Assembly (NCBI RefSeq): GCF_000280925.3
Contig: NZ_CP012109.1
Span: 1,736,001 to 1,800,000 of the forward strand
DNA from: Myxococcus hansupus
GTDB lineage: Bacteria; Myxococcota; Myxococcia; Myxococcales; Myxococcaceae
Direction of reading: 5' to 3'
DNA: 64,000 nucleotides
Position numbers and translations under genes: made by a program. Within the stretch, counting starts at the first letter, position 1. Each line of letters begins with the position of its first letter. Of the stretch, positions 6,630-11,764 are shown one piece after another. Below the pieces are notes generated by a model that worked only from the letters and a program-made list of their open reading frames with translations, did not search any database and was not told the DNA's origin.

Positions 6630-6694
6630 CGTCCTCTCCAGTCTGGCGGACCTCGTTCACGGTGTCGAGGCTGCGTGCTTGCCAGGCCTGGGGC

Positions 6695-6730
6695 TATACG
6701 GTTCCGTATCGCGATACGGGAGCGTATCGG
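6695..6730. promoter_or_regulatory. probable TetR operator
   Basis: A perfect 16-bp palindrome, CCGTATCGCGATACGG, at 6704-6719 lies between the divergent TetR and DUF2867 genes. Related half-sites flank it: TATACGG at 6695-6701 and CGTATCGG at 6723-6730. Two overlapping dyads of this kind are typical of TetR operators that bind two dimers. Assignment to the neighbouring TetR protein is inferred from position. Confidence 0.7.
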
Positions 6731-6751
6731 ATGGCTGGAATGGAGGCGGAG

Positions 6752-7348
6752 ATGCGAGTGACGAAGGGGGCGCTGCCGAGGGTCATCGCGGCACTTCGCG
6801 AAGTCGTGGGTGTCGTGCTCTTCAAGACGCGTGTCTTCGTCCAGTCGCGGCAGCCCCGCGTGCTACCGGCCGTGCTGCGTCCCTTCGCGCAGGGCGCGGA
6901 CCACGTGGACGTGAAGACCGTGGAGTCCCGGGCCACGCTGCGCGAGTTCCTCGCGGGCCTCATGTCGTACCAGCCCGCGTGGGTGACGGCGCTGTACGGG
7001 GTCAGGGCCGTGTTCGTGCGGTTGCTCGGCATGCGGCAGCAGGGCGTGCCTCGGCAGGTGCTGTTTCGGCCAGAAGACATCCCGATGACGCCGGGCCGCG
7101 AGGCCGGTTTCTTCACCGTGCGCCATGCCGAGGAGGAACACGTGTGGGTTGTCGCCGCCGCGGACACGCACCTGGAGGCCACGCTGGCGGTGGTGATGGA
7201 GCCCACGAGCGGCCCCTTCCGACGCTTCCACGTGGTGACGTTGGTGCACTATCGGAACTGGGCGGGGCCGGTGTACTTCAATGTCATCCGGCCCTTTCAC
7301 CACCTCGTCGTCGAGCGCATGGCCCGCAGCGGGGCGCGCGTCGCGTGA
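6752..7348 (+). CDS. DUF2867-family protein
   Basis: A 198-residue protein of the DUF2867 type, with the family-like core LFRPEDIP, GFFTVRHAEEEHVWVVAAAD and a C-terminal FHHLVVERMA segment. DUF2867 domains occur alone or fused to NAD-binding oxidoreductases; no reaction is established. The start at 6752 is chosen because GGAGG (6742-6746) lies 5 bases before it; in-frame ATGs at 6731 and 6740 are possible but sit within or next to the operator. Divergent from the TetR gene and probably under its control. Confidence 0.7.
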   Translation: MRVTKGALPRVIAALREVVGVVLFKTRVFVQSRQPRVLPAVLRPFAQGADHVDVKTVESRATLREFLAGLMSYQPAWVTALYGVRAVFVRLLGMRQQGVPRQVLFRPEDIPMTPGREAGFFTVRHAEEEHVWVVAAADTHLEATLAVVMEPTSGPFRRFHVVTLVHYRNWAGPVYFNVIRPFHHLVVERMARSGARVA

Positions 7349-7360
7349 CGGGTGGGCCGC

Positions 7361-8071
7361 TCAGGGCCTCCGTCGGCCACGGGCACGAAAGAGGTCATCG
7401 TAGAGGCTCAGGAAGAGGTGTCCGCCCAGCGCGAGCCCCTGCTCAATCACGTGCGCCGCCGCGGTGTCTGCTTCATGGGGGGCGTCGAGTTGCTGGATGA
7501 AGCCCTCGGCGTGCAGTTCGTCGAGGTCCGCGTGCGTGGGGTAGTGGACCACCTGCGCCGCGTTCAGCCATCCGCGCTCGACGATGCTCCGCCCCAGCGC
7601 CAGGGAGATGCCGCTGAACAGGTCCTCGATGATGCCGAACACGGCCAGGCCAGTGCGCGTGTCCTCGAAGGCGGCGATGCCCGTCAGCGCGAGGTTGAAG
7701 GCTCGCACTTCGGGCCAGGACACCAGCGCGTCGACCTGCGTGGCCGGGACGCCCAGTCGCTCCAGGAGCGTCCGGAACGTGTGCTCGTGGCCATGCGCCA
7801 AGGTGCCACGTCCATGCTCATCGAAGACATTCTCCACCAGGGGAAGGCGCTGGCTGGCGTGTGGCAGGCGGCTGGCGAGCACCGCCATGGGCCGGGAGAA
7901 GTGCGCGACCGCGGCGAAGAACTGGAGCTGCGTTTCGACGAAGTCCTCCCTCGCGAAGGTGCCCTCGCGCAGCGCGCGGAAGTAGGGCGTGTCCGGAACA
8001 TTCCACGCCGTCTTGAGTCCGGCGATGTGCTGACGGAGCCTCAGATTTCGGACGAGGGAAGGTGAATCCAT
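7361..8071 (-). CDS. heme-oxygenase-fold (iron-containing redox) enzyme
   Basis: A 236-residue all-helical protein of the iron-containing redox enzyme / TenA-PqqC-like superfamily. Candidate metal-ligand segments are FVETQLQFFAAV, ENVFDEHGRG followed by HGHEHTF, and IEDLF. Known relatives (for example the UndA type) are non-heme diiron oxidases that act on fatty acids or amino acids, but this member's substrate is unknown. It is the last gene of a three-gene leftward operon: its start (ATG 8071, MDSPSLVRNL) overlaps the end of the GNAT gene by 31 bases. An upstream in-frame start at 8119 is less likely. Context with a BtaA-like enzyme suggests a lipid or amino-acid headgroup substrate (inference). 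Confidence 0.7.
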   Translation of the reverse strand: MDSPSLVRNLRLRQHIAGLKTAWNVPDTPYFRALREGTFAREDFVETQLQFFAAVAHFSRPMAVLASRLPHASQRLPLVENVFDEHGRGTLAHGHEHTFRTLLERLGVPATQVDALVSWPEVRAFNLALTGIAAFEDTRTGLAVFGIIEDLFSGISLALGRSIVERGWLNAAQVVHYPTHADLDELHAEGFIQQLDAPHEADTAAAHVIEQGLALGGHLFLSLYDDLFRARGRRRP

Positions 8072-8961
8072 GCGGGCGCTAGTACCGGAAAGGACAGGTC
8101 CAGGGAATAGACGGTGCACACGGAGTCGGGCGAGATGCCCTCACCGCGAAGCCAGGTGACGTGGTCCTCCAGCTTCTCGTCAATGCTGACGCACGCGAGC
8201 GCTTCATCGTTCCATCCCGCGAGCTCCGCGCCACAGTTTCGCAGGTATTCACCCCAGCCCTGCGTCCAGTGCTCCGGCGGCGCCGGGAGGTGAATCAGTG
8301 GCCACGGGCGTCCTGTCGAATGTCGCTGGAGGTCCTTGCTGCCCGCGGTGGAGCACCATCCCGCCCCCTCCATGTGGCGGCCCGGCGAGGGCCCCAGGCA
8401 GAGGCCTTCGCCCGTGGGTGGGGGCGGGGCTGCTCGCGTGTCCAAGGCCGCCAGCCGCGCCGGCGGCACGAAGTAGAGCGCGAGCCGGCTCGCCGGACGC
8501 CCCATCCGCAGGGGATTCCAACCGCGCGCCGCGCGCATCACGTCGCCCCTCGCGCCTCGCATCGCCGCGCCATACAGGAAACGCGTTCGCCGCAGGGGCG
8601 GGAGGAGGAAGAGGTGCTTGAGCCCTTCCAGCAGCAGCCGCGTCGACAGGCCCGCGCCCCGTGCCTCCTTCGCCAGCTTGAGGTCACAGATGTAGAGCGC
8701 GTCCGCCCTCCGCGCACCCCGTGCCACGGTCCGGGCCACACCCGTCACCGAGCCGAGCAGCGTGTCTCCTCGCAGGGCGAGCAGGAAGTACGCCTCGCCC
8801 ATCGAGGAGAAGAACGGGTGGTAGGTGGGGCCGTGGTCGATGAAGAAGTGGTCGGCTCCATCCGCCAACGGGTAGTGGATGCCCTGCTCCAGCAGGCGCA
8901 GGCGTTCGACATAGGGCCCGAGCGTGTCGGGCCGCGCCACGACGAAGCGGACGTCTTTCAT
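8041..8961 (-). CDS. GNAT-type N-acyltransferase domain protein
   Basis: A 306-residue protein whose first half reads as a GNAT acyl-CoA-dependent transferase. The core runs through AYFLLALRGDTLLGSVTGVARTV, ADALYICDLKLAKEARGAGL (the acetyl-CoA-binding R/Q-x-x-G-x-G/A region, here KEARGAGLS) and LLLEGLKHLFL. The second half (about residues 180-306) has no family I recognise. It sits in the middle of an operon: ATGA overlap (8958-8961) with the BtaA-like gene upstream, and a 31-base overlap with the heme-oxygenase-fold gene downstream. Such tight coupling suggests the three proteins act in one pathway. Confidence 0.7.
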   Translation of the reverse strand: MKDVRFVVARPDTLGPYVERLRLLEQGIHYPLADGADHFFIDHGPTYHPFFSSMGEAYFLLALRGDTLLGSVTGVARTVARGARRADALYICDLKLAKEARGAGLSTRLLLEGLKHLFLLPPLRRTRFLYGAAMRGARGDVMRAARGWNPLRMGRPASRLALYFVPPARLAALDTRAAPPPPTGEGLCLGPSPGRHMEGAGWCSTAGSKDLQRHSTGRPWPLIHLPAPPEHWTQGWGEYLRNCGAELAGWNDEALACVSIDEKLEDHVTWLRGEGISPDSVCTVYSLDLSFPVLAPAWIHLPSSEI

Positions 8962-9920
8962 GGGCGGAGGGGCTGGCGGAAGCCGACTTCGATGCGCTCG
9001 TAGAACAGGCTCCTGTCCTGGGCCAGCAACGAAGCCCCCAGCGCATCATCGAACTCGAAGGCTGGCGCGAAGAAGCGGCGAAGGTCCCTGCGGTTGTTGA
9101 GCTGCCGAAGCAGGATGGCGCAGCCGGGCCGCGTCTCGCGCGAGAGCAACCCAGCCCACTCCGCGACGAGGGCGTCGTCCGACCAGTCGAAGATGTTGGA
9201 CAAGGAGATGACCTGGAAGCGTCCCAGCCCGGGGACGTCGGGCAAGGCGCCCTGGACGAGCGTCAGTGCCACGGGGCCTGTCGCCCGCAGGTACTCGGGG
9301 GCGTCCGTGGCCAGATACCGGCCGAGCAGGACGTGCTGGAGAAACGGGTTGCGAGGCGCGTCCTCGCGCAGGAGGCCGCGCTCGAAGACGCGCTGGAAGT
9401 AGCCCGGATAGGAGCCGGGCTCCGCGTGCTGCGTCGCCGCGGGTCCGAACATCGCGTGCAGCAGCGGCGTGGCCAGCGCCAGCTCGAACGCCACCGGCCA
9501 GTAGGGCGAGTCGAACCAGCGCGTGCGCAGCGTGTCACGGTGTGACGCCGGGGTCTCCGGTGCGAAGAACGCGGCCACGTCGTGCGCGGGGGCGACGAAC
9601 TCCTCGATGAAGCGGCGCAAGGTGCGAAAGAGCCCTTCGAACGAACCCCGCTGGTTCAGCGCGCCGGGCGTTTCCGACTCCACGTTGAAGTCGGCCAGGG
9701 GGCGCTGGCCCAATCCCTCTGCTTTCTCGCGGACATGCGCGAGTTGACGCGGATTGAAGTCGAAGCCCACCAGCTCCATCGCCGGGTGTCTCCGCGCCAG
9801 CGTCAGCAGGGTGCAACCTCCCGAGGCCACCGTCAGCACGGCCTTCGCGTTCGTGTGCTCCACGAGCGCCAGCTCCACTGCCGCGTCCTCCCGGACGACT
9901 GCGAACTTCAGCGATTCCAT
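8958..9920 (-). CDS. DUF3419 / BtaA-like 3-amino-3-carboxypropyl transferase
   Basis: A 320-residue protein of the DUF3419 family, whose characterised members (BtaA) move the 3-amino-3-carboxypropyl group of S-adenosylmethionine onto diacylglycerol in betaine-lipid synthesis. Visible features are the methyltransferase-like nucleotide-binding segment LTVASGGCTLLTLARRHP with GFDFNPRQLAHVREKAEG, the central FARTL-like FEGLFRTLRRFIEEF, and the late ISLSNIFDWS motif. It is the first gene of the leftward operon and lies head to head with the desaturase gene, with at most about 25 bases between the starts. No BtaB methyltransferase is seen next to it, so the product may not be a betaine lipid. Confidence 0.75.
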   Translation of the reverse strand: MESLKFAVVREDAAVELALVEHTNAKAVLTVASGGCTLLTLARRHPAMELVGFDFNPRQLAHVREKAEGLGQRPLADFNVESETPGALNQRGSFEGLFRTLRRFIEEFVAPAHDVAAFFAPETPASHRDTLRTRWFDSPYWPVAFELALATPLLHAMFGPAATQHAEPGSYPGYFQRVFERGLLREDAPRNPFLQHVLLGRYLATDAPEYLRATGPVALTLVQGALPDVPGLGRFQVISLSNIFDWSDDALVAEWAGLLSRETRPGCAILLRQLNNRRDLRRFFAPAFEFDDALGASLLAQDRSLFYERIEVGFRQPLRP

Positions 9921-9945
9921 GCCATGGTTCTACCCCGGAACCCGC

Positions 9946-10878
9946 ATGCCGCTCATGACAGTCACCCTGGCCCCTTCACGGCTTCGCGAACTGGAGCAGG
10001 TCGATGCCCGGCACGTCCCGCGGCTGTTCGGCTTCCTGCTGCTCTACCTGGGCGCCGCCGCGCTGGCTGTCACGCTCGCGGGCCGAGACAGTCCACTCAT
10101 CGGGTGGCTCGCGCGCGCCGCGCTCTATCTGCTCGCCGCGGCTTCACTCCATGGCATCAGCCTCTTCACCCACGAGGCGGTTCACGGGGGCCTGGCCCGG
10201 CGGCCCTGGCTGAACCGCCTGGGCGGGATGGTCTGCGCGCTGCCGGTGCTCCAGAACTACGCCGCCTACAAAGTCCTTCATCTGCGTCACCACGCGGACC
10301 TGGGAGGAGGGAAGGACCCGGACCACTACGCCAACTACACGGGGCGTCGCTGGCTGGAGTTGCTCATGCACGTGGGCCGGTTGCTGCTGGGCTATCCGGC
10401 CTACATCACCCTGATTCCCATCCTGGGGTGGCGGCAAGGCACCGCCGCCGAGCGACGGTGGATTGAAGCCGAGGTCGGCCTGGCCGCGGTGGCCGTGGCG
10501 CTCGCCGTGGCCTTCATTCCAGGACAGGTGTTGCTGCATGCGTGGGCGATTCCGATGCTCCTCCTCAACACGATGGTGAATGTCCGAGGCATGAGCCAGC
10601 ACACGTTCCTGCCGGAGAGCGACCACCCCGTCCGGGGCACGCGCACCATCCTGTCCAACCCGGTGACGCGTTTCTTCATGTGCAACGAGAACTACCACCT
10701 GGAGCACCACCTGTATCCCCGCGTGCCCTGGTACAACCTGCCCGAGTTGCACCGGACGCTGCGCGCCGAACTCGTCGCCCAGGGGGCGCCCTTCATCCCG
10801 TCGTACGTCTCGTTCGTGCGTGGCGTCATCTCCGGCTCACTCCTCCGCGCGGCGAGGCCCGTGGCACCGGATGCGTAG
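9946..10878 (+). CDS. membrane fatty-acid desaturase / hydroxylase
   Basis: A di-iron membrane desaturase-hydroxylase of about 310 residues. All three histidine boxes are visible: HEAVHGG, HLRHHAD and NYHLEHHLYP. Hydrophobic segments flank them (LFGFLLLYLGAAALAV near the N-terminus and a pair before the third box). The family inserts double bonds or hydroxyl groups into acyl chains, carotenoids or sphingolipids at the cytoplasmic membrane; the substrate cannot be told. Start choice is uncertain: ATG 9946 has CGGAA five bases before it, while in-frame ATGs at 9919 and 9955 are alternatives. Its stop overlaps the start of the PAP2 gene by 8 bases, so the two are coupled. Confidence 0.85.
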   Translation: MPLMTVTLAPSRLRELEQVDARHVPRLFGFLLLYLGAAALAVTLAGRDSPLIGWLARAALYLLAAASLHGISLFTHEAVHGGLARRPWLNRLGGMVCALPVLQNYAAYKVLHLRHHADLGGGKDPDHYANYTGRRWLELLMHVGRLLLGYPAYITLIPILGWRQGTAAERRWIEAEVGLAAVAVALAVAFIPGQVLLHAWAIPMLLLNTMVNVRGMSQHTFLPESDHPVRGTRTILSNPVTRFFMCNENYHLEHHLYPRVPWYNLPELHRTLRAELVAQGAPFIPSYVSFVRGVISGSLLRAARPVAPDA

Positions 10879-11764
10879 CGGGCCGTATCTTCACGAGCTG
10901 CTGCTGGGCACCTTCGGCGTCATCCTGACGCTCGCGCTGCTGTTCATCGCGGGGCCCGCCGCGCCCGAGAGCCTGCAGTCCCTGCTGGCCCTCACGGCGT
11001 TCGCGGCGGGCGTGGGGTGGCTGGCGCGCAAGGATGGCGAGGCGCACGCCTTCCGCTTCCGGCTGATGTTCGCCTACGTGGCGACCTTCTTCTTGTATGC
11101 CTTCGTGGCGAAGTCCGTGCCGGCGCTCGGGCTGACGCCTCGGGACGATTTGCTGCTCGCGGCCGACTTGCGGCTCGTCGGGACCACGCCCGCCGCATGG
11201 CTCCAGCGCTGGAGCACGCCCTGGGTGAATGAGGTGTTCAGCGCGAGCTATCTCGCGTTCCACGGCTACCTCCACCTGGCCATGGCCTGGGCCGTGCTGG
11301 GGCCACGTGCGCGGGCGGAGCCATTCTTCGTCCAGGTCTTCTCGGCCTATGCCTTCGGCCTCGTGGGCTACTACGTGATGCCCGCGGTGGGGCCCTCCCT
11401 CGCCGCGCCGGAGCTGTTCACCATGCCCATCGAGGGTGGCCCCATCACCCGGCTGAACGCGGCGGTCGTGGCCCAGGGCTCGTCCACCTACGACCTCTTC
11501 CCCAGCCTGCACACGTACATCACGCTGGTCCTGCTACGTCATGACCGGGTCCATCATCCTTGGCGGTTCCGGCTGATGGTTCCCGTCGCCGTGGCCATCA
11601 TCGCGTCCACCTTGATGCTGCGTTACCACTATGCCGTGGACCTGCTCGCGGCCCTCGTGTGGTTCGCGCTCTTCAGCGCGCTCATGCCCTGGGCGATGCG
11701 CATCGAGCGCGAGGCGCGTGACGACCGCGCAGCCCGAGCAACGAAGACTCCACCCGCGAGGTGA
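10871..11764 (+). CDS. PAP2-superfamily phosphatase / phosphotransferase (Aur1/Ipt1 type)
   Basis: A 297-residue polytopic membrane protein. Motifs of the PAP2_3 group are present: GYYVMPAVGPS, FPSLHT (the PSLH block) and MLRYHYAVD (the C3 block with catalytic His and Asp). Members either remove lipid phosphates or transfer a phospho-headgroup between lipids, as in fungal Aur1 (inositol phosphorylceramide synthase). It starts at ATG 10871, inside the end of the desaturase gene, which supports a shared role in remodelling a membrane lipid. Together with the divergent BtaA-like operon it makes a five-gene lipid-type locus. Confidence 0.85.
   Translation: MRSGPYLHELLLGTFGVILTLALLFIAGPAAPESLQSLLALTAFAAGVGWLARKDGEAHAFRFRLMFAYVATFFLYAFVAKSVPALGLTPRDDLLLAADLRLVGTTPAAWLQRWSTPWVNEVFSASYLAFHGYLHLAMAWAVLGPRARAEPFFVQVFSAYAFGLVGYYVMPAVGPSLAAPELFTMPIEGGPITRLNAAVVAQGSSTYDLFPSLHTYITLVLLRHDRVHHPWRFRLMVPVAVAIIASTLMLRYHYAVDLLAALVWFALFSALMPWAMRIEREARDDRAARATKTPPAR

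What the first reader, a model, noticed from the sequence alone, without database searches (positions are those of the whole stretch)
7361..11764. Head-to-head lipid-type locus with a BtaA-like enzyme but no BtaB
A BtaA-like transferase, a GNAT protein and a heme-oxygenase-fold enzyme overlap each other in one operon. A desaturase and an Aur1-like PAP2 protein overlap in the other, and the two operons start at most about 25 bases apart. Together they could build or modify an unusual lipid carrying a 3-amino-3-carboxypropyl headgroup, which is acylated by the GNAT protein instead of trimethylated. No such pathway is known to me.
Basis: inference. Interest (0 to 1): 0.6.

Follow-up and report, generated by a model that had tools for sequence, protein, structure and literature searches.

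The report
Conserved three-enzyme aminolipid-type gene cassette
Myxobacteria and several unrelated bacteria carry the same trio of enzymes, which probably attaches an amino-acid piece to an acceptor, adds an acyl group to it and oxidises it; the product is unknown, and in Myxococcus two lipid-modifying genes have joined the set.

Summary
Five genes lie at 7361-11764 in two tightly overlapping, divergent operons with 25 bases between start codons, and all five are linked in 27 of 27 genomes of the genus. No BtaB ortholog was found.

The real unit is smaller and wider than described. BtaA-like + GNAT + 'heme-oxygenase' genes occur together in 52 of 56 named loci from Myxococcota, Poribacteria, Planctomycetota, Pseudomonadota and Vogelbacteria, in several gene orders. 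Desaturase + PAP2 join in 13 of 56. [quoted passage not shown] The GNAT is a tandem-GNAT protein folded like N-myristoyltransferase; it ends in isoleucine in 53 of 53 loci, at the place of the NMT terminus whose carboxylate is the catalytic base. A second, non-orthologous cluster again couples DUF3419, an HDO and an N-acyltransferase.

Most likely mechanism (inferred): 3-amino-3-carboxypropyl transfer from SAM, N-acylation, diiron oxidation. A glycerolipid acceptor is plausible, not shown.

The parts
7361..8071 (-). [quoted passage not shown] the ORF can also be read from GTG 8119
   Evidence: PF14518; profile matches to CADD, HrmI and BesC; model pLDDT 91, CADD Z 25.8; ligand positions E101 H111 E165 H196 D200 in 53/53, H203 in 52/53
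8041..8961 (-). Tandem-GNAT N-acyltransferase with N-myristoyltransferase-like fold and a fixed C-terminal isoleucine (P0002)
   Evidence: PF00583 in 19 of 25 members; model pLDDT 90.5; NMT1 Z 17.7, 256 residues, 3.4 A; ends in Ile in 53 of 53 loci
8958..9920 (-). BtaA-like (DUF3419) enzyme of the SAM 3-amino-3-carboxypropyl transferase type (P0003)
   Evidence: PF11899 68.6 bits, 15 of 15 family members match; hhalign to alphaproteobacterial BtaA E 3.7e-18
9921..9945 (.). 25-base region between the two divergent start codons
   Evidence: Start codons read directly; the desaturase may instead start at ATG 9955
9946..10878 (+). Membrane fatty-acid desaturase family protein with three histidine boxes (HEAVH, HLRHH, HLEHH)
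   Evidence: PF00487 167.4 bits; boxes found
10871..11764 (+). PAP2_3 / Aur1-like membrane phosphotransferase or phosphatase (SLHT and HYAVD motifs), from ATG 10871
   Evidence: PF14378 48 bits; motifs; 30 of 30 strong homologs (194 bits or more) lie at the cassette

Best explanation
A three-enzyme SAM-consuming pathway. (1) The BtaA-like enzyme moves the 3-amino-3-carboxypropyl (ACP) group of SAM onto an acceptor, leaving a free alpha-amine and carboxylate. (2) Instead of trimethylation by BtaB, the tandem-GNAT enzyme N-acylates that amine from an acyl thioester, using its own C-terminal carboxylate as general base as NMT does. (3) The HDO uses two irons and O2 to oxidise the carboxylate-bearing product or an intermediate (hydroxylation, desaturation/decarboxylation or N-oxygenation; order and reaction unknown). 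In Myxococcus and a few other lineages a desaturase and an Aur1-like PAP2 protein tailor the product, which points to a membrane lipid there. Shown: the genes, their linkage, families, conserved residues and predicted folds. Inferred: every reaction, their order, the acyl chain and the lipid acceptor.
For: Trio together in 52 of 56 named loci with varied order and no further constant neighbour, in line with a self-sufficient three-gene pathway. Pairwise distances co-vary (r 0.91 BtaA-GNAT, 0.78 GNAT-HO, 0.70 BtaA-HO). BtaA motifs kept. HDO ligands kept; several HDO substrates bind iron through a carboxylate (PMC13185094, passages). GNAT ends in Ile in 53 of 53 while HO and BtaA ends vary; the model's last residue aligns with NMT1 residue 496, whose carboxylate is the catalytic base (PMC7048800, passages). 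A second, non-orthologous cluster has DUF3419 + HDO + FeeM-like N-acyl amino acid synthase; its DUF3419 does not form one clade with the trio's (p-AU 0.013). Lipid hints: desaturase + PAP2 partners in 27 of 27 genus genomes, also co-linear downstream in L094; a related lone DUF3419 gene sits next to a PF01553 acyltransferase gene.
Against: No product, mutant or assay was found. P0003 lacks about 90 residues present in betaine-lipid BtaA, so the acceptor may differ. Pfam gives no NMT match for the GNAT, and by sequence its profile finds only aminoglycoside acetyltransferases at E about 0.003; NMT and the model share about 10% identity, and other tandem GNATs such as a histidine acetyltransferase are in the fold list, so the acyl chain is unknown. 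The trio is found without desaturase/PAP2 in 39 of 52 loci. HO distances track less well (r 0.70), and two loci (L086, L093) have a divergent HO in another position.
Confidence: 0.45

Rival explanations
1. The trio makes a small soluble molecule (an N-acylated non-protein amino acid, signal or metallophore), not a membrane lipid; the short BtaA-like enzyme uses a small acceptor or cyclises the SAM side chain, and the desaturase/PAP2 pair is a late addition.
For: P0003 is 320 aa against 404-429 aa for BtaA; 39 of 52 trio loci show no desaturase/PAP2; the second cluster carries a FeeM-like N-acyl amino acid synthase and an Asp/Arg hydroxylase; [quoted passage not shown]
Against: No transporter, regulator or peptide synthetase family recurs beside the trio. 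In Myxococcus both joined genes are membrane lipid-type enzymes, in 27 of 27 genomes.
Confidence: 0.3
2. A hydroxamate pathway: the HDO N-hydroxylates the amine of the ACP group and the GNAT acylates the hydroxylamine, giving a lipid-anchored or soluble iron ligand.
For: HrmI, an HDO N-oxygenase, is among the closest solved relatives by profile (8.4e-9) and fold (Z 22.9); N-hydroxylation followed by GNAT acylation is the usual hydroxamate logic (recalled).
Against: CADD and BesC, which do other chemistry, match about as well or better; no siderophore uptake family recurs beside the trio.
Confidence: 0.15
3. An ordinary betaine-lipid (DGTS) locus whose methyltransferase lies elsewhere in the genome.
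For: DUF3419 membership and conserved motifs.
Against: The best BtaB match in the genome is a 31.7-bit hit to the generic methyltransferase core, while BtaB matches lie beside 34 of 36 canonical BtaA loci (L167-L202); the trio loci included (L163-L166, L210) show none; P0003 relatives form a separate branch from BtaA.
Confidence: 0.03
4. Two unrelated operons that merely sit back to back.
For: In most of the named loci the trio occurs without desaturase and PAP2.
Against: Linked in 27 of 27 genus genomes although flanks differ among the loci examined; all 30 strong PAP2 homologs in 193 phylum genomes lie at the trio; L094 has the same five genes in one direction.
Confidence: 0.07

Closest known systems
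BtaA/BtaB betaine-lipid (DGTS) pathway
   Same: Same DUF3419 family and SAM-side motifs as BtaA
   Different: No BtaB; about 90 residues shorter; a separate branch of the tree; partnered by an acyltransferase and a diiron oxidase
Heme-oxygenase-like diiron oxidases (CADD, HrmI, BesC, FlcD, UndA)
   Same: Fold and the 3-His/3-carboxylate ligand set
   Different: About 12-20% identity in the structural alignments; substrate and reaction unknown; tied to DUF3419 and a tandem GNAT
Eukaryotic N-myristoyltransferase (NMT)
   Same: Tandem GNAT fold over the full length; last residue aligns with the NMT C-terminus, whose carboxylate is the base
   Different: About 10% identity, no Pfam NMT match, about 250-310 aa, bacterial, probably a small-molecule or lipid amine as substrate
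FeeM-like N-acyl amino acid synthase cluster (L133-L141)
   Same: Also DUF3419 + HDO + N-acyltransferase in one operon
   Different: Non-orthologous acyltransferase, different DUF3419 branch, an extra Asp/Arg hydroxylase in most

Membership tests
BtaA/BtaB betaine-lipid pathway | DUF3419 family with SAM-site motifs | tested here: met
   PF11899 68.6 bits; hhalign E 3.7e-18 over 305 columns; R10 E11 D12, G35 C36, D54, D245 W246, R272, Y307 in 56/56 (loci were picked by two BtaA motifs, so the N-terminal and GSYP columns are biased)
BtaA/BtaB betaine-lipid pathway | BtaB N-methyltransferase partner | tested here: not met
   Best hit in the own genome 31.7 bits, generic methyltransferase core; none in the five-gene cassette
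BtaA/BtaB betaine-lipid pathway | Full-length BtaA of about 400 aa with its middle region | tested here: not met
   320 aa against 404-429 aa
BtaA/BtaB betaine-lipid pathway | Diacylglycerol as acceptor, DGTS as product | not testable with these tools
   No chemistry available
[quoted passage not shown]
   Model pLDDT 91; CADD Z 25.8, 213 residues, 2.1 A
[quoted passage not shown]
   E101 H111 E165 H196 D200 53/53, H203 52/53, aligned with CADD, HrmI and BesC; the set as stated in PMC13185094; which CADD residues bind metal is recalled
[quoted passage not shown]
   Needs protein
N-myristoyltransferase | Two GNAT domains over the whole chain | tested here: met
   NMT1 Z 17.7, model 1-306 on 153-496
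N-myristoyltransferase | Catalytic C-terminal carboxylate | tested here: inconclusive
   Terminus aligned and fixed as Ile in 53/53; catalysis not tested
N-myristoyltransferase | Match to the NMT sequence profiles | tested here: not met
   Only GNAT profiles match in Pfam; so filed as GNAT, not as NMT
Membrane fatty-acid desaturase | Three histidine boxes | tested here: met
   HEAVH, HLRHH, HLEHH; PF00487 167.4 bits
PAP2_3 / Aur1-like | PAP2 catalytic histidine motifs | tested here: met
   SLHT and HYAVD (motif definition recalled); PF14378 48 bits

The most novel reading that the evidence does not exclude
Bacteria hold an uncharacterised class of N-acylated aminolipids built from SAM by a three-enzyme cassette shared across phyla, in which a bacterial tandem-GNAT uses the NMT device of a catalytic C-terminal carboxylate and a diiron oxidase remodels the homoserine-derived head.
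Probability: 0.28. Interest if true: 0.8.

Novelty: new variant of a known kind. Interest (0 to 1): 0.6.

Why it matters
If true, ACP transfer from SAM, so far tied to betaine lipids and a handful of natural products, has a second bacterial branch in which acylation and diiron oxidation replace methylation. It would add a substrate class to the HDO family and a bacterial case of carboxyl-terminal catalysis in a GNAT, a feature that a 2016 review calls unique to NMT within the superfamily (PMC4964394, passage). It also gives a clean knock-out target present in all 27 genomes of the genus examined.

Tried and rejected
Plasmid tblastn with P0003 and P0002 gave no match. Sequence search of solved structures gave nothing for the BtaA-like profile, for P0001 alone or for canonical BtaA, and only a weak hit for P0002 (E 0.8), so the BtaA-like active site could be judged by alignment only. 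Flanking genes were clustered to look for a fourth constant partner; none was found outside close relatives (the gene caller uses base composition and misses genes in AT-rich loci). FAD amine-oxidase-like genes next to two trio BtaA genes (L106, L110) and next to a lone HO (L273) are not general. HO relatives away from BtaA (L272, L273, L275) gave no clue to function; L274 is the HO of G159, on another contig than its BtaA-GNAT. Literature: searches turned up no description of the trio or of an N-acylated homoserine lipid made by a BtaA-like enzyme plus a GNAT; this covers only the held open-access library. PMC7048800, PMC4964394, PMC13185094 and PMC10491745 were seen as passages; all other papers as search listings. 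P0001 was first aligned from its GTG start; relatives begin near residue 28, so the ATG at 8071 is preferred. Eis-type GNATs were recalled as another possible case of C-terminal carboxylate catalysis; not checked.
Full report
What is in the window. Five genes lie at 7361-11764: on the minus strand BtaA-like (8958-9920), GNAT (8041-8961) and heme-oxygenase-like (7361-8071 or 8119), on the plus strand desaturase (9946 or 9955-10878) and PAP2_3 (10871 or 10820-11764). Overlaps are 4, 31 and 8 bases with the ATG starts, and 25 bases separate the divergent ATGs at 9920 and 9946. In two relatives the PAP2 gene likewise overlaps the desaturase gene by 8 bases (L061, L063). Pfam assigns PF14518, PF11899/DUF3419, PF00487 and PF14378 above cut-off; P0002 falls 0.3 bits short of PF00583, but 19 of 25 members of its family match PF00583 at E <= 0.01.

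Conservation in the genus. The window lies in a 9.49-Mb genome at C1:1736001-1800000. P0003 finds a match in 30 of 61 genomes searched; 27 of these are the genus itself, and in 27 of 27 all five genes lie in the same arrangement (loci L003-L029). Of the 16 larger regions then read, the flanks differ between genera and, largely, among the four further genus loci.

The core is a trio. A profile of 15 diverse BtaA-like proteins found 56 loci in named genomes: Myxococcota mostly, ten Candidatus Poribacteria, two Planctomycetota, Pseudomonadota including Betaproteobacteria bacterium UKL13-2, and a Vogelbacteria genome. GNAT and HO genes were both found in 52 of 56; the exceptions are L119 (contig ends), L102 (the HO of the corresponding genome G159 lies on another contig), L131 (GNAT missed at this threshold; a weak GNAT match appears for the same genome, L164) and L132 (a longer, lone DUF3419). 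The order varies: BtaA-GNAT-HO, BtaA-HO-GNAT, HO-BtaA-GNAT, or HO divergent. Desaturase and PAP2 accompany it in 13 of 56: eleven Myxococcus-group loci, L087 (divergent) and L094, where all five genes run in one direction. No further constant neighbour was seen. Pairwise distances co-vary: r 0.91 (BtaA-GNAT), 0.78 (GNAT-HO), 0.70 (BtaA-HO); without L086 and L093, 0.91, 0.84 and 0.78. Such correlation also reflects shared species history. The strong PAP2 homologs (194 bits or more) in 193 phylum genomes are 30, all at the cassette; the next, in G042, has 133 bits and no trio beside it; the window genome has a second PAP2_3-like protein at 27% identity elsewhere.

The BtaA-like enzyme. Nine alphaproteobacterial BtaA proteins with BtaB beside them served as reference. 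Profile comparison gives 99% probability and E 3.7e-18 over 305 columns, with the ED motif, the GGC loop, the acidic D-x-N, the DW motif, R272 and Y307 in common. In the 56 loci R10, E11, D12, G35, C36, D54, D245, W246, R272 and Y307 are invariant, N56 is kept in 53 and R303 in 50, with the caution that the loci were selected by two BtaA motifs. The protein is shorter (320 against 404-429 aa). In a 31-protein tree the trio, canonical BtaA and the second cluster form separate groups. BtaB: the best match in the window genome has 31.7 bits, over the generic methyltransferase core.

The heme-oxygenase-like protein. A 25-row profile matches CADD (2.5e-13), HrmI (8.4e-9) and BesC (2.3e-8); the model (pLDDT 91) aligns with CADD at Z 25.8, 213 residues, 2.1 A. 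E101, H111, E165, H196 and D200 are invariant in 53 of 53 and H203 in 52, which fits the 3-His/3-carboxylate set described for HDOs (PMC13185094, passages). Which CADD residues bind metal is recalled. So this is very probably a diiron oxidase, not a heme oxygenase.

The GNAT. The model (pLDDT 90.5) spans two GNAT domains by comparison; Foldseek and VIA-align put N-myristoyltransferases first (Z 17.7, 256 residues, 3.4 A, 10% identity), with a Kribbella GNAT and a histidine acetyltransferase also on the list. The last residue of the model aligns with residue 496 of human NMT1, whose C-terminal carboxylate is the catalytic base (PMC7048800, passages). The reading frames of 53 of 53 GNAT genes end in isoleucine, 32 as SEI and 15 as SDI, while the commonest three-residue end of HO covers 10 of 53 and of BtaA 8 of 56. 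Because gene order differs between groups, overlap with a following gene is unlikely to explain this. Carboxyl-terminal catalysis is therefore a good, untested inference; the acyl donor is open.

A second cluster with the same logic. In nine loci (L133-L141; genus g31 and one genome of the window's genus) another DUF3419 protein stands with another HDO; in most of them a FeeM-like N-acyl amino acid synthase and an Asp/Arg hydroxylase lie beside it (the stretches are about 4 kb, and L135 shows no hydroxylase match). Holding its DUF3419 and the trio's as one clade is disfavoured (p-AU 0.013). An ACP-transferase type enzyme, a diiron oxidase and an N-acyltransferase have thus probably been combined more than once.

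Interpretation. The simplest reading is ACP transfer from SAM, N-acylation and diiron oxidation. The review of SAM chemistry lists few ACP transferases of small molecules, BtaA among them (PMC10491745, passages). A lipid product is favoured in Myxococcus by the two membrane lipid-type partners, and by a related lone DUF3419 gene next to a PF01553 acyltransferase gene; trio-only genomes leave a soluble product open. Searches of the held library showed no description of this trio.

Noticed in passing
L133-L141 (for example L134:477-3942): Second biosynthetic cluster with DUF3419 + HDO + FeeM-like acyltransferase + Asp/Arg hydroxylase in related myxobacteria, product unknown.
   Followed up: partly
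   Followed up: partly
L031 / L076 / L132: A longer, lone DUF3419 protein next to a PF01553 (PlsC-type) acyltransferase gene in a Deltaproteobacteria MAG.
   Followed up: partly
L272:6098-6961: Second HO copy in one genus genome (G013) away from any BtaA or GNAT gene.
   Followed up: partly
L032:1364-2280: Very divergent DUF3419-like protein beside a phytoene/squalene-synthase-like ORF (recognised by eye) in a family member.
   Followed up: no
window 6662-7348: DUF2867 gene between a TetR-type gene and the cassette; no match to it was seen beside the cassette in the other loci examined.
   Followed up: no
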